Origin: Candidatus Peregrinibacteria bacterium RIFOXYB2_FULL_33_20 | GTDB lineage: Bacteria > Patescibacteriota > Gracilibacteria > UBA1369 > GWF2-33-10 | NCBI GenBank assembly: GCA_001788835.1 | Contig: MFXK01000028.1 | Span: forward strand, 1 to 60,255 | Length of the DNA stretch: 60,255 bases | Direction of reading: 5' to 3' | Shown here: piece by piece, positions 1 through 49,797 of the stretch | Numbering within the stretch: the first letter of the stretch is position 1 | Layout of the letters: every line of letters starts with the position of its first letter | Program-made: the position numbers and the translations under genes | Notes under the pieces: generated by a model | Database searches by the model: none | Told to the model about the DNA's origin: nothing | The model's input: the letters and a program-made list of their open reading frames with translations, nothing else

Positions 1-892
1 TTTTACAATCCCATAAATCCTCGCATTCAAAACAATTAGTAGCATTTTTACAGTTAAATAAATAATCTCCACTTACATTTTCATTTTGAACTCCGTGATA
101 AAATTTTTGTGGAAACTGCAGAGTAAATTCTTGAAATTGAGCGGTTAATTGCTTAAGAAAATGTCTATTTTTCAAACAAGCCATCGCCTCTTCATACTTT
201 TCTTTTGGCATTGGTTTATTTAAAATATGATACTCTTTCTGTCTTAAATTCACACACATAAAACAATGCTTAAGTCCCGTACAATTAAGAAGAAAAGCAC
301 TATCATTACAAGTCTCAGAATTTTCCACAAAATAACAATTAAAACAATTCTGAATATCACAACAATTATAGCAAAGTTCAGATTTCCTAGCTCTATATGA
401 CTCCATAACATCATTGCACTTATTAATGCTATAACTATACAGACAATCTCTAGATTCATCAGAATCAAATATCATATAACAATTTTTGTTTTTTCCAGAA
501 TGATTTGTATACTCTGAATTTTCATCAAATTCATAAGCTGTAAAAAGTGCTGGTTTTGGTACCTTAAGTGATAATTCATTAAATTGTTCGAAAAAGGACA
601 TGTTAAAATTAAAATCCATTCCATATTTCAAAGCGTCCCATTTATCACTATACCAATAATCTTGTTTATACACTTTATGAACAGAACTTGGATGATAATT
701 CGAAATTATTTTTTCTCCTGTTGCATCGCATTTTCGTTCATATAAATTTAACTGATTAATTCTTGCCAATCTTCTTATTTTTCTACACCTCAAACAGTGA
801 GTTGGCGCGGGTACGCTAATTTTTTCATAAAATTTTAAATCCAAATCAGTTATTTCGAAACTTTGAGAACAGTTTTTGCAAATTTTTTGCAT
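1..892 (-). CDS. Cys-rich multi-zinc-ribbon protein, copy 1 (3' end outside window)
   Basis: The frame is open from an ATG at 892 to the window edge, about 297 residues, so the C-terminus is missing. It opens MQKICKNC and holds about 22 Cys in CxxC or NCxxC spacing: an N-terminal ribbon (CKNC, CLRC), then a long stretch with a Cys pair every 10-20 residues. It is a clear paralogue of the gene at 1773-3527, sharing the start, the SFFEQFNEL segment and the GVQNENVSGD segment. The family is, to my knowledge, common in Patescibacteria and has no assigned function; metal binding is inferred from the Cys pairs. It is divergent from the TrmB-like gene at 1036, with 143 bp between them. Confidence 0.85.
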   Translation of the reverse strand, partial: MQKICKNCSQSFEITDLDLKFYEKISVPAPTHCLRCRKIRRLARINQLNLYERKCDATGEKIISNYHPSSVHKVYKQDYWYSDKWDALKYGMDFNFNMSFFEQFNELSLKVPKPALFTAYEFDENSEYTNHSGKNKNCYMIFDSDESRDCLYSYSINKCNDVMESYRARKSELCYNCCDIQNCFNCYFVENSETCNDSAFLLNCTGLKHCFMCVNLRQKEYHILNKPMPKEKYEEAMACLKNRHFLKQLTAQFQEFTLQFPQKFYHGVQNENVSGDYLFNCKNATNCFECEDLWDCK

Positions 893-1035: not shown

Positions 1036-1776
1036 ATGGATTATATAAAAAAAGTTTTATTAGATGCTGGACTTGAAGATTTAGAAATAGAAGTTTATTT
1101 GAATCTTTTAAAAATAGGGGAAGCGCCTGTAAGTACAATAGCTCGCAAAATAGGATCAAAAAGAACTAATATATATAATGTTACAGAAAAATTAAGTCAA
1201 AAGGGGTTTTTGAGTGAAATTAACAAATCAAATGTCAAATATTTCAGCGCCATGGATCCAAAAAAGATCCTTTATTCACAAAAACAACAAAAAGATATAG
1301 TAGAAAGAAACATACATAATTTAGAAGAGATTTTGCCCCAACTTGAAAGTCTTAAGGATCCTTATGCACTTAAACCTAGAGTTAGCTTCTATCAGGGGAA
1401 AGAAGCAATTGGAAGTTTACTTATTCAAACGCTGGAAGAGCCTTTTGATGCGTATTTTAATCCGGATGAAGCTTATAATCTTTTTCCGAAATCAATTGAG
1501 GATTTTCAAAAACACTCAGCAGAAAAAAATCTTTTTATAAGAGAGCTTCTCACTTATGGACGTTTAAGTAAAAAATATATAAAAGAAGTAAAAAATCCAA
1601 ATCATAAATGTAAAATTTTACCAAAAAGATATAATTTTTTTACTGATAATTTCATTTTTCATGACAAAATAATATTCATTTCATACAGAACTTTAATTGC
1701 TGTAGTTATTGAAAATGAAGATATCGCCCTTACCCAAAAACAAGCTTTTGAAATTATGTGGAATAGTTGTATTTAA
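1036..1776 (+). CDS. TrmB-like winged-helix transcriptional regulator 1
   Basis: 246 residues. The N-terminal 75 or so match the TrmB-type winged helix: a short helix, LEIEVYLNLLKIGEAPVSTI, a recognition region with SKRTNIYNVTEKL, and a wing leading to the KYFSAMDP segment typical of this family. The C-terminal part, from about 115, resembles the effector-sensing region of TrmB-like proteins; no ligand can be read from it. The gene is divergent from Cys-rich gene 1, and its stop codon overlaps the stop of Cys-rich gene 2 by 4 bp (1773-1776). Probable role: regulation of itself and the adjacent Cys-rich gene, inferred from layout and the inverted repeats upstream. Confidence 0.85.
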   Translation: MDYIKKVLLDAGLEDLEIEVYLNLLKIGEAPVSTIARKIGSKRTNIYNVTEKLSQKGFLSEINKSNVKYFSAMDPKKILYSQKQQKDIVERNIHNLEEILPQLESLKDPYALKPRVSFYQGKEAIGSLLIQTLEEPFDAYFNPDEAYNLFPKSIEDFQKHSAEKNLFIRELLTYGRLSKKYIKEVKNPNHKCKILPKRYNFFTDNFIFHDKIIFISYRTLIAVVIENEDIALTQKQAFEIMWNSCI

Positions 1777-3527
1777 TAAATGGTCTCCAAATAACATTTC
1801 TCACAATACACTATCTCTTTTCTCTCAAGTGGATAAGTAGTTTGAATTTCAGTATTACATTTCATGCAGTTCCTTGTCCAAAGTTTTCTAGGATTTCGCA
1901 TAGATAATCTTTGTCTATGTCTACAATCTGGACAGTTTTTTGGAATTGGCAGTTTTAGGCTGCGATAAAATTTTAATTCTTGTTTTATTATTTTGTAGTA
2001 TTTATTGCATGATTCACAATTTAAAATTTGATTAATGATTTCATCTTTGACGGAATCAATATTATCAGGAATTTCAATTTTCGGGCCAAAATATTCGCTA
2101 TTTTTTTCTTCATCTTTCCATTTATAGTTTTTTGACAATGCTTGTTCTTTGGTCGTTGGAAAATATTCCTGGGCTACTGTTTCATTGTAACCAAAGGGAG
2201 AAATTGATGATGGAAAAAATTCACCCCATTCAGAATCCTCCCATTTCAAATCCCCTAAATCCCCTTTAACAAGGGGACTTTCCGATCGCCCCCTTGTTAA
2301 AGGGGGGTGGGGAGATTTCATTGCCTCAATAATTTTTGGTACTAATTGTTCATATTCTTTTTTTGAATATTGTTTATTTAAGATGCAATATTTTTTATGA
2401 TTCAGACCAATACAACCAAAACAATCACTAACATTGTTAATGCAAAAATAACAATAAAGTAAATTACTTACATTATTCCAGCATGATGCTGAGAATTGAA
2501 CATTATAAAAATTGTTTCCGCAAAGATGATTTTCATATCCTAATTCTCCAGTTTGCCCCCACGCATAACAATCATGACAATTTTTGCTCTCATGAAGCCA
2601 TGTGCAATTTTTGCATTCTTCTGAATAATTACAATCAAAACAATTTGTAAGATTTTTTGAAAAGGAAATATGGTCGCCACTAACATTTTCATTATTTATG
2701 CCCTGATAATATTTGTGTGGAATAATTTTTTGTAAATCCAAGAATTTCTGTTTTGCAATAATTAACCACTGTGGATTTTTTAGAAGCTGATCGATTATGT
2801 CTATATATTCTTGTTTTGAATATTGCTGGTTTAAGAAACAATATGATTTGTTTTTCATCCCAACACAACAGAAACAGTTAGAACATTTTTTGCAGTCATA
2901 TAGAAAATAGCTGTCAGTGCAATTGTTACAATATTGAGATAAAAAAACTTTATAGCAGAAATAACAGTCTACACATTCATAACAAAGCTCGCTATCAAAT
3001 ATAAAAAGACTATCCAAAACATTTTTGCATCTGTGAAGGTAGGTACAGTAATAACAATCTTCTGATTTTAAGGCCGCAAAAATTAAATATGAATTTTTGT
3101 TATAAGAAGTTAAATTAGTATAATCACAATTTTCATTTCCTGCTTGTAAATTAACTGACATTACAGGGACTTTTAGCATTAACTCGCTAAATTGTTCAAA
3201 AAAACTTTTATTAAAATCATAATTTCTGCCAAAAACTATTGGATCGTATTTATCGCTCCAGATACATTTCTGGCAATAAACTTGAAAAGGTTTATCTGGT
3301 GAATAAATTGATATTATTTGTTGTTTACAAAGATCACATTTTCTTTTATATAAAACGCGTTCATTCCTAAAGGCAAGTTTTCTTTGTTGTCTGCATTCAT
3401 AACAAAGAGTTGGTTGGGGAATTAAATATTTTTTGTCATTAAAAACAGGAGATACTTTTTCATAGAATTTTAAATCCTCATCAGTAATTTCAAAATTTTG
3501 TTGGCAATTTTTACAAATTTTTTGCAT
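1773..3527 (-). CDS. Cys-rich multi-zinc-ribbon protein, copy 2
   Basis: 584 residues with about 45 Cys. Residues 1-90 hold a ribbon-like unit (CKNC, CYEC, CDLC, CQKC). The C-terminal 85 or so hold a second version of the same unit (CESC, CPDC, CMKC, CEKC), including matching RQQRKLAFRN and RHRQRLSMRN segments, so the protein is bracketed by a duplicated domain. Between them are many NCxxC-type turns, roughly one Cys pair per 10-20 residues, which could form a Cys-lined repeat fold. About 24 residues near 404-427 are encoded by a palindromic repeat (see 2248-2318). No signal peptide, so probably cytoplasmic. Function unknown. Divergent from TrmB-like regulator 2 with 138 bp between. Confidence 0.88.
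   Translation of the reverse strand: MQKICKNCQQNFEITDEDLKFYEKVSPVFNDKKYLIPQPTLCYECRQQRKLAFRNERVLYKRKCDLCKQQIISIYSPDKPFQVYCQKCIWSDKYDPIVFGRNYDFNKSFFEQFSELMLKVPVMSVNLQAGNENCDYTNLTSYNKNSYLIFAALKSEDCYYCTYLHRCKNVLDSLFIFDSELCYECVDCYFCYKVFLSQYCNNCTDSYFLYDCKKCSNCFCCVGMKNKSYCFLNQQYSKQEYIDIIDQLLKNPQWLIIAKQKFLDLQKIIPHKYYQGINNENVSGDHISFSKNLTNCFDCNYSEECKNCTWLHESKNCHDCYAWGQTGELGYENHLCGNNFYNVQFSASCWNNVSNLLYCYFCINNVSDCFGCIGLNHKKYCILNKQYSKKEYEQLVPKIIEAMKSPHPPLTRGRSESPLVKGDLGDLKWEDSEWGEFFPSSISPFGYNETVAQEYFPTTKEQALSKNYKWKDEEKNSEYFGPKIEIPDNIDSVKDEIINQILNCESCNKYYKIIKQELKFYRSLKLPIPKNCPDCRHRQRLSMRNPRKLWTRNCMKCNTEIQTTYPLERKEIVYCEKCYLETIY
2248..2318. repeat. Palindromic repeat inside Cys-rich gene 2, translated in frame
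   Basis: A perfect 16-bp inverted repeat (2261-2276 and 2290-2305, core CCCCTTTAACAAGGGG) with a 13-nt spacer, flanked by imperfect AAATC...CCCC ends. On the coding strand it gives a Pro/Gly/Lys-rich stretch that includes SPHPPLTRGR and SPLVKGDLGDL, unlike the rest of the protein. The open frame is kept. Sequences of this kind are dispersed palindromes in many bacterial genomes. Confidence 0.75.
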
Positions 3528-6963: not shown

Positions 6964-7800
6964 ATGCTTATTCTCAGTATCATAATCGCTATAATACTTG
7001 CTCTGATTCCAGTTATAATCTGGGGGTATTTATTTTATATTAAAGAACCTGAGCCAAAGAGACTTATTCTGAAAGTTTTTTTAGGTGGGATGATATCAGT
7101 TATACCAATTATTCTTTATAAAGCATCATGGCAGTATTATCCGAATTTAAATGTGTTTTTGTATGTAGATAATTTTAAGCATCATTTTATCGGCATTGGA
7201 GATATTTTTAGCATACCTGTTAGCGTTATATTTACGTTTATGTTTGTGGGGGTGGTTGAAGAATATATGAAACATTTTATCGTTAAATTTACAGATAAAA
7301 ATAATTTAAAAAATATTGATGATGTAATGGAGTTAAGTATTATTGCGGCACTTGGATTTGCTTTTGTTGAAAATATTTTGTATTTTTTATTAATCTGGCA
7401 GAAGCAGGGTGTTCAGAATTTAATAATTGCTTTTATATTTAGATCAATATTCTCTACATTTGCGCATATTTTATTTTCAGGCATATATGGGTATTTTTAT
7501 GGCATAGCACGGTTTGCTTCTCCAATTTATAAAGAAAATCTTATTAAAAACAGATCGAGATTTATTGCTGTCATGCATAAAATTATACACTTAAAAAGTG
7601 AAACAATTTTTAAAGAAGAAAAAATTGTTGAAGGACTTATGTTTTCGATGCTACTGCACGCATTATTTAATATAGTGCTTGAATTAGATTTTACCATTTT
7701 AGTTGTTCCATTCCTTATTATTGGATATATTTATCTTTCATATCTTTTTAGTAAAAAAGAGGATCATAAGGAGTATGGGAGGGTGGTGGGGGAACAATGA
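6964..7800 (+). CDS. PrsW-family intramembrane metalloprotease
   Basis: 278 residues, about seven to eight hydrophobic segments. It carries the PrsW signature elements in order: VVEEYMKHF (EExxK type) near residue 97, ALGFAFVENILYF, HILFSGIYGYFYG, and LLHALFNIVLE near the C-terminus, giving the Glu and His ligands expected for a membrane zinc protease of the CPBP/PrsW clan. In Bacillus PrsW cleaves an anti-sigma factor; the substrate here is unknown. The ATG follows a heptamer array, with no ribosome binding site. The next gene is a large surface lipoprotein, but 314 bp of repeat DNA separates them, so co-transcription is doubtful. Confidence 0.85.
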   Translation: MLILSIIIAIILALIPVIIWGYLFYIKEPEPKRLILKVFLGGMISVIPIILYKASWQYYPNLNVFLYVDNFKHHFIGIGDIFSIPVSVIFTFMFVGVVEEYMKHFIVKFTDKNNLKNIDDVMELSIIAALGFAFVENILYFLLIWQKQGVQNLIIAFIFRSIFSTFAHILFSGIYGYFYGIARFASPIYKENLIKNRSRFIAVMHKIIHLKSETIFKEEKIVEGLMFSMLLHALFNIVLELDFTILVVPFLIIGYIYLSYLFSKKEDHKEYGRVVGEQ

Positions 7801-8114: not shown

Positions 8115-11100
8115 ATGTTTAATAAGTTTTTTGCCCATAAAATATTTATTATTATTTTATTGTCTTTTTTGATTTTTTCTCTATTTTCTTGTACTCCAAA
8201 ACAAAATGAAAGTTTTCAGTATGTTGGGAAAAATATTTTGGTTTCAGAAAGAATTTCAACCGGAGCAGATATTGTGATTTCAACTGATAAAATGGATATA
8301 AGTTCTAATGCTGACATTAAGATTAAACCTGAGATTGAAGGGGATTTTGTGAAATCAGAAAATGATAAAACAATTGTTTATCATCCAAAAAACGCTTTAA
8401 AAGTCGGAATGGTTTATGAAATTTCCGCGAAATCTGATGAGAAAATTTTGAAAGAATATTTTCAAATTATTGATGCTCCCAAATTAGTCGTTTTGTTCCC
8501 AAATCAGGACACGGAAGCAGATGAAAAATCAAAAATAACTGCAATTTTTAATGAGCCTATTGTTCCTCTGACAACTTTGGATGAGATTGATGAGAGCAAA
8601 TTGCCTATTGAGATTTTTCCAGTTACAAAAGGAAAATGGAAATGGATTGGAACAAGAACTTTGCAATTTCAGCCTGAAACAAATTTGATTAGATCATCTA
8701 ATTATAAGATTAGACTTAAAAAAGATTTCAAAACATATGATGGATTTACTTTACCTGAATTTGAATATCAGTTTAAAACAAGGCCTATCAGAAATGAATA
8801 TATAGAGCCTTCTTTATCGCAAAGTTATAGCGAACCTATTACTGTTTATTTCAACCAGCCTTTTGATTTAGAAAAAACAAAAGGGCATATAAAGGTAAAA
8901 AATAATACTTTGAATCAGGCTGTAGATTTTATAGCTGAATATGGTAAACATTCTGTCTGGGATGAAGAAAAAAAGAAAAATATTGAAGAGGAGAATCAAT
9001 CAATTTTGGCAATATATCAAAAAGTTGATAAATATAATCGTCCTAGATTTTGGAATTTTTCTGAAAGTTATGGTGTTGAAATTGAAAAAGTTGTTCCCCA
9101 GGAAGGTGATATTTTTTTAGAAGAAAAACTTGTATTAACAAGAGATATCAATAATATTGTATCAAATATTTTTCCTGTATCAGAGCGGGCTTCTTTTCAG
9201 GATTTTCAAATGATTGATCCAAAAGGATATATAGAAGTGGATTTTTATGAAAATATTGATTTAAAGAAAAGTATTATTTCTTCAGATAAAATTAAAAACA
9301 TTGAAAACATTGAAGAATGCGATTCAAATAAAGAAATTGTTTATGAAAATAATGAAACTGTGTGTGATAAAATTTTAAATAAATCAAAAATCAAAATTTT
9401 TCTAAATAGCGATAAAATAGTTTTAAATGAAAGTTTTAAATTGAAATTAGAGAAAATTTTTAATGAAAAAGGATTGGAAATGAATGTTGATCCAATTGAA
9501 TATGATTTCAAATCAGCACCAAAATTTGAGATTTTAAAAATTGTGCAAGATGGATCAAAATCAGCATCAACTGATAATTTAATTATTTGTTCAAATACAG
9601 AAATCCATGTGCCTCAATTAACCTCAGATAATGAAAAAGTTAAACCGGAAAATATTGATGATTTTTTAAAAGTTAATTTAGGTTATAAATTTAAAGAATG
9701 GGGTAATTCTTTTTATATCTATGAAGGTAATTTAACTGATAAATGTCAGCCAAAGCAATTTCAAACATATATAAATTATAGTCTGATCCCTCAATCTAAT
9801 TATGAAATCACTTTGAATTTAATAGATGTTTATGAACAAAAAGCTACAACAAAAGTTAAATTTAAAACTGGTGATATCGATAAATCAAAATTGAATTTTT
9901 ATAATTTGCAGGAAAAATATAGCATCACAACACCAGAAAAAACCAAATTAAGTTTTGCCGTACAGGCAATGGATTATATTGATATGGATATATGTGAGAT
10001 TGAACCAGCTGATATGATTGAAGCTTTGTCATATAGAATATATTATACGCAAAAAATAACTGATGAATTTACATGTAAATCAAATACGCAGAAAAGATTA
10101 GAGCTTCCGAAATTTTATTTTGGCTTAAATTATTTTCAGGTTGATTTGAAAGATTATATTGATTCAAAATACGGACATTTTGTAATTATTTTTTCTCATC
10201 CAGATTATAAAGATTATAGTGGGGTGAAAGTTTATGAGAATGTATTTGTGACTCTTACAAATTTAAGTGTTATACAAAAACAAGTGCGTGTTAGTGAAGA
10301 TGAATGGACGAAAAATGAAGGTGTAATTTTGACTGATAATCAGAAGAAAGATTTGCGAAATTTTTATTTCGTTACTGACATTAAAACTTTAAATCCAATT
10401 TTTAATGCTAAAGTACAAACTTATGAACAATTAGATCCATCAAATGCTGATAATTTTAGTTTAGGTAAAGAATATTATACTAATATTGATGGGCTTGCTG
10501 AAACTGAAATTACTTCTAATATTATTGGGACCATAGTTTATGGCGATAACAATGATACTGCAATTATAGCTTCTGATAACACTTTATCATATGCCAATTA
10601 TGCTTTTAATGATAAAAAAATATTTGTTTATACAGACAGACCAATTTATAGGCCAGGCGACGTGGTAAATGTGAAAGGTATTTATAGATTTGGATATGAA
10701 GAAAACTATGAATTTGTAAAAGATAAAGAAATAAATTTTAGCATCCAAAACAGCCAATATAATCAGACTTTTAATGCTACCTTAAAATTAAATGATTTTG
10801 GTACATTTGAAACAAGTTTCATTTTGGATAAAAGTGCTCCTTTAGGATCTTATTCAATATTGATAAATGATAATAATATTTATAATTTCGATGTTCAGGA
10901 ATATGTTGGAGCGGCATTTAAGATTGATTCAAAAACAGATAAGGAGGAGTACATGAATGGCGATACCTTTAATTTGGATATACAGTCTGATTATTATTTT
11001 GGAGTCCCAGTAAAAGAAGGGCAGTTGATTTATGATATTACAAGTCAGGATTATTATTTTGATAAATATCAGGATGAATATTTTAGTTTTGGATCGTATT

Positions 11101-14100
11101 GGTATGATTGTTATGGTTATAATGGATGTAGCTCTGGTGATAAGTATATTTTGAGAGGTGAAGCAAAATTGGACGCATCTGGTCATTCCTTGATTTCGAA
11201 GAAAATTGATTTTGTTAAATTTTTTAAAGATCAAAAGTTAAAAAGTAAAATATTTGTTGTAAATTATGCGATTACAGATTCAACTGGCAGACAGGTAGCA
11301 GGACAAAAATCATTTATTGTTCATGCTGGAGAATTTTATCTTGGACTTAAAACAGATAAATATTTTGTAACGGAAAATGAAGAATTTGAACTAAAGGCAA
11401 AATCAGTTGATGTGAATGGCAAACCTCTTTCTGTTGATAATTTGAAGGCAACTGTAAATCAAGTCTCTTATGTCACTTTTCAAAGAAAAGAAGTTGATGG
11501 CGGGTTTTATTATAGGTCAGATAAAAAATTAACGCCTGTACAAGAGATAGATTTATCAACAGATTCAGATGGTAATGCAAGTAAAAAACTTTCCATTAAG
11601 GAACAAGGTGAATATGAAATAACGATTGAAGGGGTAGATGACTCAGGAAATAAAATTTCAACAACTTCTAATTTGTATGTTGGTGGAAAAGAAAATGTTT
11701 CCGAAGCTTCAAATTTAGTCATGCCAACTAATGATACAAGTTTGACTTTGGTTAATGATAAGCCAAATTTGAATATTGGAGATGAGGCTGGTTTTATAAT
11801 CAAGAATCCATTCACAAAACCTGCAAAAGCCTTAATTGCGATTGAAAGAGGAAGGATTTATAAATATGAAATTCTGGATATCAATACAAGCTTCTATAAC
11901 TATAAATTTAAAATTGATCCAAGTTATTTACCAAATATTTATGCGTCAGTTGTTTTGCTTTCAAACGATCCAGTATCAGTCAAATATGGACAAACTAGTT
12001 ATTCTATTAATATTGATTCAAAAGAACTTGATGTGAAAGTGACTACTGATAAAGAAAAATATTTGCCTGGTGAGGAAGTTAATTTAAATATTGAAGTTAA
12101 AAATAATCAAGGTAAGCCAGTATCTGCAGAAATTAGTATTGCAGTTGTAGATATGAGTGTTTTGGCTTTGAAAGGCAATCCTCACAAGAACCCAGTTAAG
12201 TTTTTTTATGACAGTATCCCTTTAACAATTTCAACTTCAGCAAATTTAAAAAATTTACTGCATGAAATTGATATTAAAACAGGTAAAGGCGGAGGTGGTG
12301 GTGCTGACGCCACTAAGAAAAGGGGAATTTTTAAAGATACTGCTTATTGGATAGGCACATTGAAAACAGATGCAAATGGCAAGGCAATTGTGAAATTTAA
12401 TTTACCTGATAATTTAACAACATGGCAGATTGAGTCTTTGGGCATTACAAAAGATACTTTGACAGGTATTAATTATAAAGAGATTATGACGAATAAAGAT
12501 TTGTTTATTACCACACTTAAGCCAAGATTTATTGTTCCAGGTGATGAATTTGAAATTGGTGGCAAGATTTTCAACCAGTCTGGCAAATTTCAAAAAATAA
12601 AAATGAATTTAGTTTCTGATACTTTGGAAATTGATGATGATTCGCAAAGTCTGAAATTAGATGATAAAGCAAATCAGGTTGTGTATTTCAAAGTTAAAGC
12701 GCCTTCTAACATTTCTGAAGGCTTGCATAAATTTACAATCTCAATTAAGGGAGATGATTATGAAGATACAGTTGAAAATACTATACCTGTTATTGCTGAT
12801 ACAACTTATGAAACAGTGGCAACAGCAAATTATAGCACGGAAAGCGAGGCTGAATTTATTTATGTGCCTGAAAATGTTTTGGGAAATAAAGGAAGTTTAA
12901 AAATTAATACTAGTGCAACTTTGGCATTATTTTTGTCTGATGCTTTGAATTCTATACTTGCCTATCCTTATGGCTGTACGGAACAGATTGCTTCAAAATT
13001 AGACAGTATTGCGATAATTAAAAACGGCCTTAATTTAAAAAACATAGGCGATAAATTCAAAGTTAATGAAATTGTAATTGATGGTAAAAAATATGGCATG
13101 GAAGATGCGGTAGCTTTAAGTTTATCCAGGATTTATCAAAATCAACATGATGATGGGGGATTTGTATATTTTCAAATTTGGGAGAATTCAGATTTTTATT
13201 TAACTTTGAGAATGATTCAGACTTTATCAAATTTACAAAGAGCTGGATTTAATATTGATGAAAGCAGGATTAATTATGCGGTAAATTTTGTTAATGAGCA
13301 GATAAAATTAAATCCTGACAATAGATATTCTAGTTCTGATGTTATTTTAACAATGTATGTTTTGACTCAGGTTTATGGAGATAATAATGATTTTGTAAAA
13401 GAATTGTCTCCTTTTTTGAGTGAGAAAATTTTTGGAACTGATAAGTTTTTAAATGAGACAATTGATAATATTTCTTTAACCAATTTGGCATTGATGTTAA
13501 GCAGAAATCCTGATTTTTACAGTCAAGAAATTAAGGAAAAAGTTTATAAGGCTTTAGAAAATAGAATATCAATTGATGCCAGAGGAGCATATTTGAAATT
13601 ATCAGACAATACAAACTGGGCTTACTATGAAACTGCTGAAAAAGATACAGCTTTAATGCTCAAAGCTTTGATTGCTGACAAGCGTGATAATGAGCTTTTT
13701 GGAAATATTTTGAGATGGTTACTCAATTCAAGGTCAAAAGATGGAGCATGGGGATCAACAGATTCAACATTAACAGTGATTGATGCGTTTACAGATTATT
13801 TAACTTGGCAAAAAGAAACAGAATCTGATTTTAATTTAAAAATTTCACTTTCTGACAAAGAGTTGGGATCATTTGATTTTAATAAAAATACAATTTTGGA
13901 TCAGAAATCAATTTCGATTTCTCCTTTGTCTGAATTGGATATGGGCAAAATTCTTCCTCTTAATTTCCTTAAAGAGAATAAAAATAGTTTAAAAAATAAT
14001 TTTTATTATGATATTGCCCTTCAATATTATTTGCCGACCCAGAATATAAGTTCACGCGATGAAGGATTTGTAATTAACAGAAGTTATTATTTGCCAACAG

Positions 14101-14531
14101 ATTTAAAATTAGAAAAGGCAGTTAAGGAGGCAAAAGTAGGGGATATATTGGTTGGTAAGATTGATATTGTTGTTCCTGAGATGAGGCATTTCGTTGCTAT
14201 TGAAAATTATATTCCTGCTGGATTTGAATTGATTAATTTTAATTTAGATACTGAAAGTGCGAGTTTTGTTGAGTCACTTCAAGGCAAAAAAGGAGAAAAT
14301 GATTTATCAGCATTTAATTCGGATTTGTATCCTGACGTTGAGGAAATGAGAGACGACAGAGTGTTTGTCTTCAAACAAAGTTTAGAACCTGGAGTTTACA
14401 CTTATATTTATTATGTTAGAGCTTTAATCCCAGGATCATTCAATGAAATGCCAGCACAAATCAGTGAAATGTATTTCCCGGAAAATTTTGGAAGGACAGG
14501 TGGGGATGTGTTTAAGGTTGTGGAAAAATAA
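8115..14531 (+). CDS. Bacterial alpha-2-macroglobulin, thioester-containing lipoprotein
   Basis: 2138 residues. The N-terminus is a lipoprotein signal: a charged start, a hydrophobic stretch, then LFSC with Cys near 26, so it is probably lipid-anchored outside the membrane. Macroglobulin domains follow. The conserved YTDRPIYRPGD segment lies near 840, and the macroglobulin core segment (AYWIGTLKTDANG, then LPDNLTTWQIES) near 1410. The thioester site YGCTEQ has Cys-1621 and Gln-1624. A following alpha-helical thioester-domain region and a C-terminal receptor-like region complete the fold. Such proteins trap attacking proteases after bait-region cleavage; a Gly-rich loop (GKGGGGGAD) near 1392 is a plausible flexible part. 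In Proteobacteria the gene often pairs with pbpC; no such partner is seen here. An lgt gene needed for lipidation is at 37879-38694. Confidence 0.92.
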   Translation: MFNKFFAHKIFIIILLSFLIFSLFSCTPKQNESFQYVGKNILVSERISTGADIVISTDKMDISSNADIKIKPEIEGDFVKSENDKTIVYHPKNALKVGMVYEISAKSDEKILKEYFQIIDAPKLVVLFPNQDTEADEKSKITAIFNEPIVPLTTLDEIDESKLPIEIFPVTKGKWKWIGTRTLQFQPETNLIRSSNYKIRLKKDFKTYDGFTLPEFEYQFKTRPIRNEYIEPSLSQSYSEPITVYFNQPFDLEKTKGHIKVKNNTLNQAVDFIAEYGKHSVWDEEKKKNIEEENQSILAIYQKVDKYNRPRFWNFSESYGVEIEKVVPQEGDIFLEEKLVLTRDINNIVSNIFPVSERASFQDFQMIDPKGYIEVDFYENIDLKKSIISSDKIKNIENIEECDSNKEIVYENNETVCDKILNKSKIKIFLNSDKIVLNESFKLKLEKIFNEKGLEMNVDPIEYDFKSAPKFEILKIVQDGSKSASTDNLIICSNTEIHVPQLTSDNEKVKPENIDDFLKVNLGYKFKEWGNSFYIYEGNLTDKCQPKQFQTYINYSLIPQSNYEITLNLIDVYEQKATTKVKFKTGDIDKSKLNFYNLQEKYSITTPEKTKLSFAVQAMDYIDMDICEIEPADMIEALSYRIYYTQKITDEFTCKSNTQKRLELPKFYFGLNYFQVDLKDYIDSKYGHFVIIFSHPDYKDYSGVKVYENVFVTLTNLSVIQKQVRVSEDEWTKNEGVILTDNQKKDLRNFYFVTDIKTLNPIFNAKVQTYEQLDPSNADNFSLGKEYYTNIDGLAETEITSNIIGTIVYGDNNDTAIIASDNTLSYANYAFNDKKIFVYTDRPIYRPGDVVNVKGIYRFGYEENYEFVKDKEINFSIQNSQYNQTFNATLKLNDFGTFETSFILDKSAPLGSYSILINDNNIYNFDVQEYVGAAFKIDSKTDKEEYMNGDTFNLDIQSDYYFGVPVKEGQLIYDITSQDYYFDKYQDEYFSFGSYWYDCYGYNGCSSGDKYILRGEAKLDASGHSLISKKIDFVKFFKDQKLKSKIFVVNYAITDSTGRQVAGQKSFIVHAGEFYLGLKTDKYFVTENEEFELKAKSVDVNGKPLSVDNLKATVNQVSYVTFQRKEVDGGFYYRSDKKLTPVQEIDLSTDSDGNASKKLSIKEQGEYEITIEGVDDSGNKISTTSNLYVGGKENVSEASNLVMPTNDTSLTLVNDKPNLNIGDEAGFIIKNPFTKPAKALIAIERGRIYKYEILDINTSFYNYKFKIDPSYLPNIYASVVLLSNDPVSVKYGQTSYSINIDSKELDVKVTTDKEKYLPGEEVNLNIEVKNNQGKPVSAEISIAVVDMSVLALKGNPHKNPVKFFYDSIPLTISTSANLKNLLHEIDIKTGKGGGGGADATKKRGIFKDTAYWIGTLKTDANGKAIVKFNLPDNLTTWQIESLGITKDTLTGINYKEIMTNKDLFITTLKPRFIVPGDEFEIGGKIFNQSGKFQKIKMNLVSDTLEIDDDSQSLKLDDKANQVVYFKVKAPSNISEGLHKFTISIKGDDYEDTVENTIPVIADTTYETVATANYSTESEAEFIYVPENVLGNKGSLKINTSATLALFLSDALNSILAYPYGCTEQIASKLDSIAIIKNGLNLKNIGDKFKVNEIVIDGKKYGMEDAVALSLSRIYQNQHDDGGFVYFQIWENSDFYLTLRMIQTLSNLQRAGFNIDESRINYAVNFVNEQIKLNPDNRYSSSDVILTMYVLTQVYGDNNDFVKELSPFLSEKIFGTDKFLNETIDNISLTNLALMLSRNPDFYSQEIKEKVYKALENRISIDARGAYLKLSDNTNWAYYETAEKDTALMLKALIADKRDNELFGNILRWLLNSRSKDGAWGSTDSTLTVIDAFTDYLTWQKETESDFNLKISLSDKELGSFDFNKNTILDQKSISISPLSELDMGKILPLNFLKENKNSLKNNFYYDIALQYYLPTQNISSRDEGFVINRSYYLPTDLKLEKAVKEAKVGDILVGKIDIVVPEMRHFVAIENYIPAGFELINFNLDTESASFVESLQGKKGENDLSAFNSDLYPDVEEMRDDRVFVFKQSLEPGVYTYIYYVRALIPGSFNEMPAQISEMYFPENFGRTGGDVFKVVEK

Positions 14532-40597: not shown

Positions 40598-40774
40598 ATG
40601 TTTATGACCGAAGAAATTATGACGCCGGAGCAGGTAGCGGATTATCTTAAGCTTCACCCTATGACTGTGCTCAAAATGATCAAAGCGAAGAAGATCAAAG
40701 CCATGAGAATAGGTAGAGTGTACAGAATTGCAGGCAAAGATCTGAAAGAATTTCTCAATAGTGTCAAAATTTAA
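40598..40774 (+). CDS. Excisionase-type small HTH protein
   Basis: 58 residues, beginning MFMTEEIMTPEQVADYLKLH and continuing with a KMIKAKKIKAMRIGRVYRI segment and KDLKEFL. This is the compact HTH_17/excisionase winged-helix pattern: a helix-turn-helix with a basic wing ending in Arg-x-x-Arg-Ile. A second in-frame ATG at 40604 is an equally possible start. It lies 9 nt before a small zinc-ribbon gene and probably forms an operon with it. There is no integrase nearby, so it is more likely a regulator than a recombination factor. Confidence 0.8.
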   Translation: MFMTEEIMTPEQVADYLKLHPMTVLKMIKAKKIKAMRIGRVYRIAGKDLKEFLNSVKI

Positions 40775-40783
40775 TTTATATTC

Positions 40784-40996
40784 ATGATTTTCAATTGTCT
40801 TGGTTGCGGCAAATCGGTATCAAGCAGAATGGATATTTGTCCTTATTGCAAATTTGTGCAAACCGAGATTGTGGCGGCTTTGGAGGAGATGCAGTCTCAT
40901 AAATCATTATCCGTAGGAGAAAATTATAAAGGCACCATTTTCAGTGCTTTGTGGAAGCAGGTTCAGTCCGGTGCGAAGTTGGCTTATAGGAGATAA
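40784..40996 (+). CDS. Small zinc-ribbon protein
   Basis: 70 residues. Two CxxC knuckles at the N-terminus (Cys-5, Cys-8, Cys-19, Cys-22 in CLGC and CPYC) make a short zinc ribbon, followed by a helical tail (EIVAALEEMQS) and a basic end. Begins 9 nt after the HTH gene and ends before a bidirectional hairpin. Function unknown; nucleic acid or protein binding is likely for such ribbons. Confidence 0.75.
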   Translation: MIFNCLGCGKSVSSRMDICPYCKFVQTEIVAALEEMQSHKSLSVGENYKGTIFSALWKQVQSGAKLAYRR

Positions 40997-41082: not shown

Positions 41083-42258
41083 TTAATTATCTGAACATTG
41101 TTTTTTAATAACTTCATTGAGACAGCTGGAAGTTGCTTTTAATTCCGGTATAGCTTGCTTGATTAAATCATCTAGACTGGCAAGCTGTGAGGCAAAAGAC
41201 TTGATGATGCTGTCGTTTAGTTGATTATATTTGATATCATACTTAGCTAAACGCTTGGCAAAATCAACATCGAAAGCATAACGTTGTTTGTCTTTATCTT
41301 GAGCATTGATTACTGCTGGTATGGAAACAGAAGATGGGTCATTGTTGTTTTGACTTTGATTATTAGCTGATCTTGATTTCATGTCTTGATAAATATCGGA
41401 AAACAGTGTTCCAGCATCTTTGAGAGGTTCCACATTATCAATCCGGAAAGCTAAACGCGCCCATATTGTTGGTTTTGTATTTGGGGAATCTTTTAATATC
41501 TGGATATCTTTTAATAAAGTTTCCACAGAAGCACTATTCGGTCCATCTTTTAGGGGGTTGGCTTGATAGTTGAGTGGGTCATCTAATTCCATGTCTTCTT
41601 TTAAATTATCTAATGATAAAGCTTGAAATTTGTCTTCGATGCTTTGGAGTTTCATTTTGAGGCCTTCAATGCTGGGATCAAGGCAATTGATGTAGGAATC
41701 TTTGTCGTATCTTTGATAAAATTCATTAATATAGTCATCAAGCTGATCAGAGGATAGATATTGTTTGTCATTGACAAGGTATTTAGATATTTTTGCTTCT
41801 AAAACTTTGCGTCCATTTTGTTTGGCTAATTTGCCTTCAGTTTTGGATAAACTACTGTCAGTTTTGGCCTGAAAATTGCGGACGAAATAAAGTTGGGCAA
41901 GCAGTTTATAATATTCATTAATCATAACGTCGACATTGATGGCTTTGTTAGCTCCTTGTCCATCAAGGCTGGTATTGAGCGCATCAAGGCTGTCTTCTAG
42001 CACGCTATTTAAGATATCTTCTCTGATTTTGCTTTGCTGAGTTCTAAGTTTAAAAATTTCAGTGCGTTGGCAATAAGGTCGAAAATAATCTTTCCAGCTT
42101 TTTTTCCAGCTTTCGTAATCAGCCAAACTATCAAGGAATTTGATAGCGCTATTGCGATCTTGAGTGCCGTCATCAGCCCATACTTTGACAGGAAAATAGG
42201 TCGTCAACAGACTTAAACAAAGAATGGATAAAAGCAATTTTTGAAAAACTTTAGACAT
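41083..42258 (-). CDS. Exported protein with C-terminal Cys loop (operon gene 4)
   Basis: 391 residues. Signal peptide KLLLSILCLSLLTTYFPVKVWA with a likely cleavage after VWA. The mature part is charged and mostly helical with few Cys. It ends in SSCLNEVIKKQCSDN, a Cys-x8-Cys loop next to the C-terminus. Starts 2 nt after operon gene 3. Function unknown. The shared end pattern with the three genes before it suggests disulfide-closed tails outside the membrane. Confidence 0.75.
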   Translation of the reverse strand: MSKVFQKLLLSILCLSLLTTYFPVKVWADDGTQDRNSAIKFLDSLADYESWKKSWKDYFRPYCQRTEIFKLRTQQSKIREDILNSVLEDSLDALNTSLDGQGANKAINVDVMINEYYKLLAQLYFVRNFQAKTDSSLSKTEGKLAKQNGRKVLEAKISKYLVNDKQYLSSDQLDDYINEFYQRYDKDSYINCLDPSIEGLKMKLQSIEDKFQALSLDNLKEDMELDDPLNYQANPLKDGPNSASVETLLKDIQILKDSPNTKPTIWARLAFRIDNVEPLKDAGTLFSDIYQDMKSRSANNQSQNNNDPSSVSIPAVINAQDKDKQRYAFDVDFAKRLAKYDIKYNQLNDSIIKSFASQLASLDDLIKQAIPELKATSSCLNEVIKKQCSDN

Positions 42259-42260
42259 AA

Positions 42261-44195
42261 TTAACTGCAGTATTTTTTATTAAGAAGGGCTGGACAAGCA
42301 TTCTCACCAGTATTGATTTGATTTATCATTTTGAAAAAAGAGGAAAAATAACTATTCATTTTGGACATTTCAGCCCCTAGCGCCTTATAATTATCAGCTG
42401 TGGCTTGGGTTTCCACCTCCAACGGTTGTTGTTCTTTTTTGTTGGCAATTTGAAATTCAATTTCATCGTGCAGTTTGATCAAAGCATTGCCTGCTGATTC
42501 CAAAGATAACTGCTCAGTGCTTAATAGTTTTTCCTCAGCTTTGGTGAATTTATTAGAAAAATTGTTTTGATCAAGCGGAGGACTCGGTTCTTCTCCACTG
42601 TCTTCATTAAAACTATAGATATCTTTTAGCTGTTTTTTAAAATCAGGGGTGTTACTAATGAGATTATCGTCTAAAGGAGAGGTAATCGGTTGTTTGATCA
42701 TGGTGACATTTAGTCCGGGCGAAACATTTTCAAAAGCTTTTTTACACTTTGGCGCTTCCAGAATATTGCCGGTGACTTTATTGGGTACTAAGGAATGATT
42801 GCTTAAATCTTCAAAAGTTTTTAAGATAAACTGAATGTGGCAGGCAATGCAATTATCTGTTTGTTGATACACTAATGTTTTTTCTTGTGTGCTATTGTTA
42901 GTATTTTCCTGACTATTATTGGTAGTAGTTGAAGAGTCTTTTTTGTCTTCTTGGTCATCGTTATTTTGAAAGCTGATCTTGAGGCAGAAATGAGTACCGC
43001 AAGGTAAAACAAAATTCCAATTATTGCTATCAGTTTTTGCTTTTATATTATCAAATGCAGCTTGTAAAGTTTTGGCGCTAGTGGTTGGCGATTCGTCAGA
43101 GCTTGGGGTAGTTGTGGTTGACATTGGCTCTCCAGTTGGCGAGATTTTTTCCTGTTCCTGATTATTTTGGTGATTTTCGTTTTGATCTTCATCGTTGGAA
43201 TCGATTTTGTTCATTTGAAAATTTTCAAAAGCTTGCTTAAGGGTAGAGTCCTCAAAACAAGAATTTGGTTTATTAGGATCAAAATAGTTTGTTTTCTGAT
43301 AGTTAGAGGCCTGGCTGATGGTATTTGTACTATTAAGATTTGGATCATTATAGCTTTGATTATCGGAATCCTGACTAGTAATGTTTTGATCACTAGAGTC
43401 TGCCTGGTTTGTTTCAGCTGCGCTTTTAGAATCTTCGTAATTAGTTTTATTATTAATTCTATTTTGAGCTGAAGTTTGATTATTTTTTTCATTGTTTTTA
43501 TTGATCAGTGTCCCAGTTGCTTCTGAGGCGCTGTTAACTAGCTCGCTGGCAATTTTGACAAATTCAGGGGCGCTGAGATCTTTAGAAGAGGAACTGCCTT
43601 CTAACTCAGTCTCGTTTATGATAATTTTGTTGAATAAAATAGATTCAATCACTTCCAAATCATAAACTAAATCAAAGCCGGAATTATTGGTATCGCCATC
43701 CACAAAAATTTCTTTCGTGAAGATGTAATTTTGCAGGTCATTACGTAAATTTTCGATTTCCAATTCTTGATTTATACGATCTTGAATATTGTTTAAAGCT
43801 TTTTTCATGCTCTCCTGGCTTTGTCCGGTCACAGAAGGATCAATTATACCGGTAATTAAAAAAGTTCTAATCTGTTCCTTGGATAAGTTTTGGCTTTTTT
43901 TGGTGTCGTAATTATAAAACTTGTATTTTTTACTTAAACGGTCAGTGATGTTTTCAAGCGGTATGATCTGTTGTGCTTGATATGCCGCTAAGTATAAATT
44001 TTGCCCTTCGTTTTCTTCAAAAACCGTGTGTAGATCAACTTGAGATTTATCAATTTTAAGAGTTTCCAGTAGTTTGTTGAATTTAATTTCTTGCGGAAAT
44101 AGATTTGACTGATCATCTTTGGCTTGGCTGATGTTGATAAAAGCCACAGCAAAAATGATCATCATGAACGCCAATTTTTTCCAGAAATTTTTCAT
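42261..44195 (-). CDS. Large exported Asn/Ser-rich protein with C-terminal Cys loop (operon gene 3)
   Basis: 644 residues from the ATG at 44195, which begins MKNFWKKLAFMMIIFAVAF; an upstream ATG at 44210 would overlap gene 2. Signal peptide ends near ISQA. A helical N-terminal domain (to about 210) is followed by about 120 residues of Asn/Ser/Asp/Gln-rich low complexity, a Pro/Thr/Ser linker, then a domain with CGTHFCLKI and CIACHI. This second Cys pair, CxxCH, has the form of a haem c site, but a single such motif without other support is not enough to call a cytochrome. The end is ACPALLNKKYCS, again a Cys-x8-Cys tail. Confidence 0.75.
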   Translation of the reverse strand: MKNFWKKLAFMMIIFAVAFINISQAKDDQSNLFPQEIKFNKLLETLKIDKSQVDLHTVFEENEGQNLYLAAYQAQQIIPLENITDRLSKKYKFYNYDTKKSQNLSKEQIRTFLITGIIDPSVTGQSQESMKKALNNIQDRINQELEIENLRNDLQNYIFTKEIFVDGDTNNSGFDLVYDLEVIESILFNKIIINETELEGSSSSKDLSAPEFVKIASELVNSASEATGTLINKNNEKNNQTSAQNRINNKTNYEDSKSAAETNQADSSDQNITSQDSDNQSYNDPNLNSTNTISQASNYQKTNYFDPNKPNSCFEDSTLKQAFENFQMNKIDSNDEDQNENHQNNQEQEKISPTGEPMSTTTTPSSDESPTTSAKTLQAAFDNIKAKTDSNNWNFVLPCGTHFCLKISFQNNDDQEDKKDSSTTTNNSQENTNNSTQEKTLVYQQTDNCIACHIQFILKTFEDLSNHSLVPNKVTGNILEAPKCKKAFENVSPGLNVTMIKQPITSPLDDNLISNTPDFKKQLKDIYSFNEDSGEEPSPPLDQNNFSNKFTKAEEKLLSTEQLSLESAGNALIKLHDEIEFQIANKKEQQPLEVETQATADNYKALGAEMSKMNSYFSSFFKMINQINTGENACPALLNKKYCS

Positions 44196-44200
44196 AAATA

Positions 44201-44863
44201 TTAAGTGCATTGGTTAGTGGTAACATTCAGAAATTTACTTGGCAATAAATCGCTTGGTTCGCGGATTTTGATTAACTGGTCGCGATATTTTTCCAAATCC
44301 TCAATAATTTTTTTATATTCCTTATGCATCTGATAATTTTTCAAATAGCCATCATATAAGGTCAATGCTAGATCAAAAGACTCAATGGCCGCATCGATTT
44401 CTTGGCTGATATTAACTTCACTGGTTTCGCCTTGAGTATAGACGTAGTTTTGAATAGAATTATTACTTTGCGTATCAATCGCTAATCCTTGACTGTCGAA
44501 ATCTTTTAAAGCCAAGATATAAGCTTTTAGTTCTTCGCTTCCTTGAGTGGCCAGGCAATAGGTGGAAATATTATCTTCAGAACAGCTAGTAATGTCAGCA
44601 GTAGTTTCTGTGGTTATAACACTTAGGTCTTTTATTTTTTTTACTTTAGAGTTAAATAGATCGTTCATGTATTTATGATGAGCGGCGCTAAGATCATTTA
44701 AAGATGTACGATTATCGACCATGGTTTGGAAATTCGGCATGTTCACCGCGTAAGTGGTAGTGATGGGATTTTTTATGAAAATTTTAAATAGACCAAAAAT
44801 GCAGGCTCCTAAGAGCAATATTGATAGGCTAAGGGCAATAAATTGTTTTCTTTTTTTAGGCAT
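44201..44863 (-). CDS. Membrane-anchored exported protein (operon gene 2)
   Basis: 220 residues. A basic N-terminus (MPKKRKQF) and one hydrophobic helix (IALSLSILLLGACIFGLFKIF). LGAC resembles a lipobox, but the hydrophobic stretch continues past the Cys, so a simple anchor is more likely. The rest is helical, with DLALTLYDGYLKNYQMHKEYKKIIEDLEKYRDQL near the end and the tail NVTTNQCT. It starts 11 nt after gene 1 ends and finishes 5 nt before the gene 3 ATG. Function unknown. Confidence 0.72.
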   Translation of the reverse strand: MPKKRKQFIALSLSILLLGACIFGLFKIFIKNPITTTYAVNMPNFQTMVDNRTSLNDLSAAHHKYMNDLFNSKVKKIKDLSVITTETTADITSCSEDNISTYCLATQGSEELKAYILALKDFDSQGLAIDTQSNNSIQNYVYTQGETSEVNISQEIDAAIESFDLALTLYDGYLKNYQMHKEYKKIIEDLEKYRDQLIKIREPSDLLPSKFLNVTTNQCT

Positions 44864-44874
44864 TTAAATTTAAA

Positions 44875-45444
44875 TTACTGAGTAACGCATTTCTTGACAT
44901 AGCAGGGTAAATTCAAACCAAAACCATCAATATAGGCTTTGAGATAGCCAAGCATGATATTGAGTTCACTTAATTTAGCATTAATTCTTTTATAAACAAT
45001 CAGTAATAAATTAGTTTCTTTAGCGATTGAGGTTTGCATCACGGTTTCCCTGATAACGTTGGACCATCTTTCTGACTGTCCATCAATAATGGCGTCGCAA
45101 GTAGCCAGCATATCGCCCTGGGACATAATATCGCTATTGCTTTGATAGGCTCCAGCCCAATCTTCATGCAAAGAGGCATCTAAAATATCAATATAAGTGG
45201 TAAACTTAGTCATGGTATCGTCAATAAGGTCGGAGGTCGGCGAAGAGTTAGTCAATTGTTGTTTTATATAATTTTCCATTTCCGGTTCATTTTTTTGAAT
45301 AATACTGTCTAAATACACAGCGCAATTAGGATCAAGCGGAATGCCATTTTTGTCTTTAGGCAGATTTCCTTCGGCCCAAGCGTAAGCAATCAATCGGCTA
45401 AAAAGCACAATAACAGTCAGTAAAGATAATAAGATTTTTTTCAT
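44875..45444 (-). CDS. Exported protein with C-terminal Cys loop (operon gene 1)
   Basis: 189 residues. Signal peptide (KKILLSLLTVIVLFSRLIAYAWA) with cleavage after AWA. The mature part is helical. Cys residues are few: one near the mature N-terminus (PNCAVYLDS), one in the middle (TCDAIIDGQ), and the tail LPCYVKKCVTQ with Cys-x4-Cys. First gene of a tightly spaced four-gene minus-strand operon whose products all appear to be exported. No family recognised. Confidence 0.75.
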   Translation of the reverse strand: MKKILLSLLTVIVLFSRLIAYAWAEGNLPKDKNGIPLDPNCAVYLDSIIQKNEPEMENYIKQQLTNSSPTSDLIDDTMTKFTTYIDILDASLHEDWAGAYQSNSDIMSQGDMLATCDAIIDGQSERWSNVIRETVMQTSIAKETNLLLIVYKRINAKLSELNIMLGYLKAYIDGFGLNLPCYVKKCVTQ

Positions 45445-49340: not shown

Positions 49341-49568
49341 ATGAAGACATATAATTTCCCAATTGTTATTACGCAAGATGAAGATGGAATATATATTGCA
49401 AAAGTTCCAAGCTTATTGGGTTGTCACACTCAAGCAAAGACATTGGCTGATTTATATGTAAGGATTGAAGAAGCAATAGCTTTGTGTTTGGAAGTTGAAA
49501 AAATGAAACGACATAATATATATCAAGAAAGATTTATAGGTATGCAACAAATACAAGTAAGTATTTAA
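49341..49568 (+). CDS. hicB: HicB-family antitoxin
   Basis: 75 residues, partial RNase H-like fold: FPIVITQDEDGIYIAKVPSLLGCHTQAKTLADLYVRIEEAIALCLE, the HicB core. It is short, with no obvious C-terminal DNA-binding extension, yet a strong palindrome precedes it. It is followed after 1 nt by hicA, so the antitoxin is the first gene, as in many HicBA loci. Confidence 0.88.
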   Translation: MKTYNFPIVITQDEDGIYIAKVPSLLGCHTQAKTLADLYVRIEEAIALCLEVEKMKRHNIYQERFIGMQQIQVSI

Positions 49569-49569
49569 T

Positions 49570-49797
49570 ATGCCAAAACTTCCAATTATTTCAGGTAAAA
49601 ATCTTTTAAAGATTTTAAAAAAGTATGAATATGTTCAGGTTAGGCAAAAGGGTAGTCATGTTTTTGTTGAAGATAAAAATGGTGAGTTGAGTACTGTAAT
49701 CCCTGTACATAGAAATGAAGATTTAGGGAAAGGGCTTTTGAGAAGTATAATTAATGATTTAGAATTAGATGTGGAAGATTTATTAAACATGATTTGA
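49570..49797 (+). CDS. hicA: HicA-family mRNA interferase toxin
   Basis: 75 residues. Double-stranded RNA-binding-like fold: KLPIISGKNLLKILKKYEYVQVRQKGSHVFVED, with His-30 at the catalytic position, then TVIPVHRNEDLGKGLLRSII. It cleaves mRNA when not bound by HicB. The rlmE start codon lies only 2 nt after its stop, so the downstream RNA-modification genes probably share its transcript. Confidence 0.92.
   Translation: MPKLPIISGKNLLKILKKYEYVQVRQKGSHVFVEDKNGELSTVIPVHRNEDLGKGLLRSIINDLELDVEDLLNMI

What the first reader, a model, noticed from the sequence alone, without database searches (positions are those of the whole stretch)
41083..45444. Four-gene operon of exported proteins that all end in a Cys-bearing tail
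Gaps are 2-11 nt, all four products have a signal peptide or anchor, and all end within five residues of a Cys: CYVKKCVTQ, TTNQCT, CPALLNKKYCS, CLNEVIKKQCSDN. Three have a Cys-x4-8-Cys loop. I recognise no family. The pattern suggests one surface or periplasm-like assembly with disulfide-closed or mixed-disulfide-linked C-termini. The largest protein also has a Ser/Asn-rich linker and CIACH.
Basis: partly seen in the sequence, partly recalled or inferred. Interest (0 to 1): 0.72.

Follow-up and report, generated by a model that had tools for sequence, protein, structure and literature searches.

The report
Disulfide-linked four-protein surface complex of Gracilibacteria
Four neighbouring genes of a tiny uncultured bacterium encode exported proteins of no known family, and across related genomes the cysteines at their tails disappear only in matched pairs from different proteins, which indicates that the four are chemically bolted together on the outside of the cell, probably next to a giant surface protein.

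Summary
In detail: four minus-strand genes P1-P4 (45444-41083), each with an N-terminal export signal or anchor, each ending within five residues of a Cys (4% background). No Pfam, NCBIfam or convincing PDB match. They are a conserved operon of Ca. Peregrinibacteria: P3 in 46/47 good genomes of the order, class-wide (144/241), and in no sampled genome elsewhere in the phylum. The operon usually follows a giant (here 5,487 aa, outside the window) SLH/TSP3 surface protein.
The decisive result is Cys covariation between different proteins. P1-C181 and P3-C648 are present or absent together in 46/46 genomes; P3-C639 and P4-C379 in 52/52 (one shifted Cys counted); P1-C186 and P4-C388 in 42/42, lost together again in another family; P2-C219 and P3-C489 in 49/49 and in most of the class (3 exceptions). 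Mismatched pairs, including the two Cys within one tail, are not concordant.
So the tails are most likely inter-subunit disulfides, not closed loops: P1, P3 and P4 form a three-way ring and P2 is tied to P3. The linkage is inferred from sequence, not shown chemically; the role (surface assembly with the giant protein, perhaps attachment) is a guess.

The parts
44875..45444 (-). P1, 189 aa exported all-alpha protein; tail PCYVKKC. C181 (codon 44904-44902) inferred to bond P3-C648; C186 (44889-44887) inferred to bond P4-C388; C41 and C116 invariant, presumably intramolecular
44201..44863 (-). P2, 220 aa exported or anchored all-alpha protein, homologous to P1; tail KFLNVTTNQCT (family F[DN].[TS]T..C). 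C219 (44209-44207) inferred to bond P3-C489; C94 and C103 invariant, presumably intramolecular
42261..44210 (-). P3, 649 aa hub protein: helical N-domain with GD...SGFDL..DL..IE..LF motif, Ser/Asn-rich linker, Cys domain (C318, C404, C409, C454-x2-C457-H, C489), C-terminal helix and tail C639-x8-C648. Start may be Met6 (44195)
41083..42258 (-). P4, 391 aa exported all-alpha protein with long C-terminal helix; tail C379-x8-C388. C379 (41124-41122) inferred to bond P3-C639, C388 (41097-41095) to bond P1-C186; C63-C192 inferred intramolecular; the family pair C34-C89 is absent here
42744..42746 (-). P3-C489 codon, inferred partner of P2-C219
   Evidence: covariation
42267..42296 (-). P3 tail C639 (42296-42294) to C648 (42269-42267): inferred partners of P4-C379 and P1-C181
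   Evidence: covariation
40598..40996 (+). Convergent small genes HTH_17 (58 aa) and a 70 aa CxxC...CxxC protein; the HTH_17-like gene borders the operon in many relatives. Neighbours, not claimed as members of the complex

Best explanation
P1-P4 are the exported subunits of one hetero-oligomeric complex of Gracilibacteria (Peregrinibacteria sensu lato) held together by inter-subunit disulfides. Inferred bonds: P1-C181 to P3-C648, P3-C639 to P4-C379, P1-C186 to P4-C388 (a closed three-chain ring at the C-termini, with P1's short Cx4C tail stapling the ends of P3 and P4), plus P2-C219 to P3-C489; P3 is the hub. After Sec export the chains would associate through their helical C-terminal regions, and DsbA-like/VKOR enzymes would oxidise the tails. 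Because the operon normally follows the gene of a giant (thousands of aa) SLH/TSP3-bearing surface protein whose last domain holds a CxxCPC motif, the complex most likely assembles with or anchors that protein at the cell surface. Shown here: operon, conservation, synteny, covariation. Inferred: the disulfides themselves. Weakly inferred: contact with the giant protein and a structural or attachment role.
For: (1) Conserved synteny giant-P1-P2-P3-P4 across about 15 families of the order and in several other orders of the class; P3 in 46/47 high-quality order genomes, 144/241 class genomes, none outside the class. (2) Cys covariation: P1-C181/P3-C648 28 both, 18 neither, 0 mixed; P3-C639/P4-C379 35/17/0; P1-C186/P4-C388 41/1/0; P2-C219/P3-C489 48/1/0. 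(3) Losses fall in different lineages for different pairs, on a tree made without the tail columns: 5 and 6 changes for P1-C181 and P3-C648, 3 and 3 for P3-C639 and P4-C379; one f15 genome (L136) has both P1-C181 and P3-C648 while its relatives have neither. (4) Class level: P1 and P3 tails concordant in all 21 genomes compared; P1 second Cys and P4 tail Cys lost together in f30 (L106, L160); P2-C219/P3-C489 concordant in 10/10 f21 genomes, 3/3 f20, 3/3 f30. (5) Internal positive controls: presumed intramolecular pairs P4-C34/C89 (49/4/0) and C63/C192 (47/6/0) behave alike; mismatched pairs do not (e.g. P1-C181/P3-C639 19/8/9/10). No Cys column of the giant protein fits these patterns. (6) Losses are point substitutions in otherwise intact tails (C to G in P1; C to V, I or L in P3). 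(7) Oxidation machinery: DsbA-like protein with CPAC in this genome and in 37/40 relatives; VKOR in 24/40 relatives.
Against: No experiment and no complex model; AlphaFold2 single-chain models are poor (pLDDT 55 for P2, 48 for P4). Independent events are few: the sign test on independent pairs cannot reach 0.05 (3-6 pairs); independent simulation on the tree gives identical patterns by chance at 6e-4 to 1e-3 per pair at the fitted rate and about 2e-4 at twice that rate. Two shifted Cys (L122 P3, L033 P4) were counted as present by eye. Exceptions: L104, L105 and L109 for P2-C219/P3-C489; L102 for P1-C186/P4-C388; the f20 P4 assignment is unclear. In f24 and f30 several P4 genes are identified by position only. 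VKOR was not found in the window's own genome. In this genome the giant gene lies 40 kb from the operon, so its part in the complex is less sure.
Confidence: 0.8

Rival explanations
1. Each tail closes its own small intramolecular loop (Cx4C, Cx8C, Cx8C), and the four proteins need not form one assembly.
For: Three of four tails hold two Cys at loop spacing.
Against: Within a tail the two Cys are lost independently: P3 25 both, 10 neither, 23 with one only; P1 17 with one only; P4 15 with one only, while each matches a Cys of another protein without exception in the order. P2 has a single tail Cys.
Confidence: 0.07
2. Cys losses coincide because some lineages lost oxidative folding or changed redox habitat, so exported Cys decay together without pairing.
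For: Losses are clustered by family.
Against: Losses are pair-specific: f14 and f5 lose P1-C181/P3-C648 but keep P3-C639/P4-C379; f4, f3 and f11 do the reverse; all other conserved Cys stay. f13, which lost the whole ring, still has VKOR and a DsbA-like protein.
Confidence: 0.04
3. Terminal Cys are attachment points, e.g. lipidated, joined to a cell-wall polymer, or binding a metal or haem (CIACH).
For: Position at the extreme C-terminus; CxxCH in P3.
Against: Does not explain pairwise covariation between proteins. No cytochrome-c assembly gene in 26 genomes; His458 is not invariant and C454/C457 become Ser-Ser together. Tails differ in sequence, so there is no common sorting motif.
Confidence: 0.04
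4. The complex is not tied to the giant SLH/TSP3 protein; the genes are neighbours for other reasons, and P1-P4 form an independent envelope machine (e.g. secretion or DNA uptake).
For: In the window's genome the giant gene is 40 kb away; in TGA-recoded families P3 and a P4-like gene sit together without the giant nearby.
Against: Giant directly upstream of P1 in nearly all order genomes with enough contig and in f17, f20, f24 and f30; the giant's C-terminal Cys motif is invariant in the order (47/47), and in f21, where the P3 Cys C318/C404/C409 are gone, the giant ends that could be read lack the motif too.
Confidence: 0.4

Closest known systems
Fibrinogen disulfide rings (A-alpha, B-beta, gamma chains)
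   Same: Three different helical chains held in register by inter-chain disulfide rings (described in PMC7186824); two Cys per chain, each bonded to a different chain, is the geometry inferred for P1, P3 and P4.
   Different: No sequence relation; bacterial; a fourth chain is tied by a separate bond; only inferred here.
FACIT collagen C-terminal cystine knots (own knowledge)
   Same: Short paired Cys at chain ends lock a trimer.
   Different: No collagen triple helix; heteromeric, helical, prokaryotic.
VirB7-VirB9 disulfide of type IV secretion (own knowledge); disulfide attachment of outer-membrane proteins in the gliding/T9SS machinery of Bacteroidota (PMC12635249, abstract only)
   Same: Bacterial envelope machines joined by inter-subunit disulfides.
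   Different: No homology detected; no ring with a hub subunit; a different phylum.
Large and cysteine-rich extracellular proteins of Ca. Peribacter (PMC4736985) and giant surface proteins of Ca. Vampirococcus lugosii (PMC8080830)
   Same: Same broad clade; giant exported proteins proposed to act in attachment; FG-GAP and DUF11-type domains as in the giant next to this operon.
   Different: In the passages read, the papers describe the giant or Cys-rich proteins but not this four-gene operon or inter-subunit Cys covariation.

Membership tests
c-type cytochrome (P3 CIACH) | Invariant CxxCH | tested here: not met
   His is Thr in 2 of 19; CxxC is SxxS in L090 and absent in TGA-recoded families
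c-type cytochrome (P3 CIACH) | Cytochrome c maturation system in the genome | tested here: not met
   PF01578 in 0/26 genomes; control search rings in 9/14
Known Pfam/NCBIfam family | P1-P4 match a curated model above its cut-off | tested here: not met
S-layer / SLH surface protein (giant partner, outside the window) | SLH domains and signal peptide | tested here: met
   PF00395 above cut-off in two giants; N-terminal signal in the 5,487 aa ortholog of this genome
Type IV secretion / VirB7-VirB9-like complex | Sequence homology to VirB components | tested here: not met
   No Pfam, NCBIfam or convincing PDB sequence match; a fold-level comparison was not possible with low-confidence models
Inter-chain disulfide ring (fibrinogen-like principle) | Two Cys per chain, each bonded to a different chain | tested here: inconclusive
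   Covariation supports it; no chemical proof
Inter-chain disulfide ring (fibrinogen-like principle) | Parallel helical bundle adjoining the ring | not testable with these tools

The most novel reading that the evidence does not exclude
A previously undescribed, ancestral surface organelle of the class Gracilibacteria: a covalently closed P1-P3-P4 disulfide ring with P2 attached, which carries a giant SLH/TSP3 fibre through a fifth disulfide (giant C-terminal CxxCPC to P3-C318), forming the base or cap of the fibrous coat used by these episymbiotic or predatory bacteria to hold their hosts.
Probability: 0.3. Interest if true: 0.9.

Novelty: categorically new. Interest (0 to 1): 0.78.

Why it matters
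Peregrinibacteria, Gracilibacteria and Absconditabacteria are uncultured or barely cultured, and how their cells build a surface and hold other cells is an open question. Here is a conserved exported complex, universal in one order and spread through the class, with no known relatives, whose subunit contacts can be read residue by residue from matched Cys loss. It predicts four specific inter-chain disulfides that can be tested by co-expression in ordinary E. coli, without culturing the organism. It also shows that Cys covariation between proteins can reveal covalent complexes in metagenomes.

Tried and rejected
The window's 2,138 aa protein (8115-14531) was first taken for the giant upstream partner; it is a bacterial alpha-2-macroglobulin with no relation to it. 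The real giant is at contig 85654-102117. An apparent P3-P4 fusion in L099 contains a run of X and was dropped as an assembly gap. CIACH as haem site: rejected. Giant-protein Cys as partner of the tail Cys: no column fits. Full-family P3 alignment failed as a pattern query; a narrower one gave nine named loci, mostly Peregrinibacteria. AlphaFold2 gave low-confidence single-chain models, so no fold search was run. PDB profile hits were chance matches of long helices such as apolipoprotein A-I. Literature searches found no description of the operon.

Full report
Observation. All begin with a hydrophobic export signal or anchor. P3 overlaps P2 by 10 nt from its first ATG, or starts 5 nt after P2 at Met6; the other gaps are 11 and 2 nt. 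Cys within the last five residues is rare in other genes (2/44 in the window, 0/10 exported-like; 8/186 in relatives) and found in 176/208 proteins of this operon in relatives. No protein matches a Pfam or NCBIfam family significantly, and PDB profile searches gave only weak matches to long helices.

Distribution. The window lies in a 1.5 Mb genome of 42 contigs. Named relatives are mostly Candidatus Peregrinibacteria. A P3 profile finds the gene in 55/59 genomes of the order and 46/47 good ones, in 144/241 genomes of the class, including lineages with in-frame TGA, and in no sampled genome outside the class (380 phylum genomes, 20 hits, all in this class). P2 is also class-wide (91/241). Gene order P1-P2-P3-P4 is kept, usually directly after a giant exported protein and facing uvrA, an HTH_17 gene and PrsW in many genomes. 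In the window's own genome the giant is separate: contig 28, 85654-102117, 5,487 aa, with signal peptide. Giants of two relatives carry SLH and TSP3 repeats by Pfam, and all readable ones in the order end in a domain with invariant CxxCPC.

Cys covariation. In alignments of up to 58 order genomes the tail Cys are the only frequently variable ones. P1-C181 is missing in 18/47 genomes (mostly C to G). P3-C648 is missing in exactly the same genomes wherever both proteins are known (46/46). P3-C639 and P4-C379 go together in 52/52, counting one Cys shifted by a few residues in L122. P1-C186 and P4-C388 are both lost in f13 only (42/42). P2-C219 and P3-C489 are both lost in L137 only (49/49). Wrong pairings are not concordant (both/neither/one/other): P1-C181/P3-C639 19/8/9/10; P3-C639/P3-C648 25/10/13/10; P3-C648/P4-C379 22/9/8/13. 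Two presumed intramolecular pairs, P4-C34/C89 and P4-C63/C192, serve as positive controls and are perfect (one shifted Cys in L033 counted). P3-C454 and C457 become Ser together in L090.

Statistics. On a tree made without the tail columns, P1-C181 needs 5 changes, P3-C648 6 (more genomes known), P3-C639 and P4-C379 3 each. Independent simulation on that tree produced identical patterns in 117 and 233 of 200,000 pairings at the fitted rate, and 41 and 43 at twice the rate. Independent-pair sign tests are in the right direction without exception but too few (3-6 pairs) to reach significance. The strength lies in several separate pairs each matching one-to-one, not in one p-value.

Class-level test. 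In families of other orders: P1 and P3 tail Cys are both present in f17, f24, f26 and f30 and both absent in f20, 21 genomes without exception. In f30 (L106, L160) P1 has lost its second Cys and P4 ends without one, a second independent co-loss for P1-C186/P4-C388; L102 is an exception. P2-C219 and the P3-C489 equivalent agree in 10/10 f21 genomes (present only in L112 and L113), 3/3 f20, 3/3 f30, L101 and L102, and 10/13 f24; L104, L105 and L109 disagree.

Mechanism. The simplest reading is four inter-chain disulfides: P1-C181 to P3-C648, P3-C639 to P4-C379, P1-C186 to P4-C388, P2-C219 to P3-C489. The first three close a ring through the three C-termini. P1 and P2 are homologous over their C-terminal helices (HHalign probability 88-93%), so part of the operon probably arose by duplication. 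AF2 models, though poor, are all-helical with long helices leading into the tails. An oxidant exists: a Thioredoxin_4/DsbA-like protein with CPAC in this genome and VKOR in 24/40 relatives, though not detected in this genome. Loss of oxidative folding cannot explain the pattern, because different lineages lose different pairs and keep the rest.

Function. The constant partner is a giant SLH/TSP3 surface protein; related organisms are known for giant surface proteins thought to act in attachment (PMC8080830, PMC4736985). A role as anchor, cap or assembly unit for that protein is the best guess (about 50-60%), not shown. In f21, where P3 lacks C318, C404 and C409, the giant ends that could be read also lack the Cys motif, a hint of a further bond.

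Novelty. No known family or system was found with these components. The linking principle resembles fibrinogen disulfide rings (PMC7186824) and other disulfide-joined envelope machines, but membership in none is met. What is shown: genes, conservation, synteny, covariation. What is inferred: the bonds. What is guessed: the role.

Noticed in passing
window 8115-14531 (+): Bacterial alpha-2-macroglobulin (MG2, A2M, BRD, MG10 domains; thioester motif YGCTEQ), preceded by a PrsW-type protease gene at 6964-7800.
   Followed up: partly
window 40598-40996 (+): HTH_17 gene followed by a 70 aa CxxC...CxxC protein, convergent with the operon; an HTH_17-like gene borders the operon in many relatives (L024, L026, L037, L039, L041, L082 and others), so it may regulate it.
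   Followed up: partly
window 2-892 and 1773-3527 (-): Very Cys-rich paralogues (22 and 45 Cys) with a sub-threshold treble-clef match in the second; a similar protein lies near the operon in L025 and L032.
   Followed up: no
window 49341-49797 (+): Pair of adjacent 75 aa genes that look like HicB/HicA toxin-antitoxin (by eye only).
   Followed up: no
own genome contig 28, 85654-102117 (L057, L058): 5,487 aa giant exported protein with TSP3, SLH, FG-GAP-like and FecR-like regions and a C-terminal CxxCPC domain; further SLH-region matches lie on many contigs of this genome.
   Followed up: partly
L115-L118: In TGA-recoded Gracilibacteria the P3 gene and a P4-like gene sit next to a ClpB-like ATPase gene instead of the giant; P2-like genes are on other contigs.
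   Followed up: partly
L022, L024, L039, L041: The giant gene upstream of the operon is replaced by long N runs in several records.
   Followed up: no
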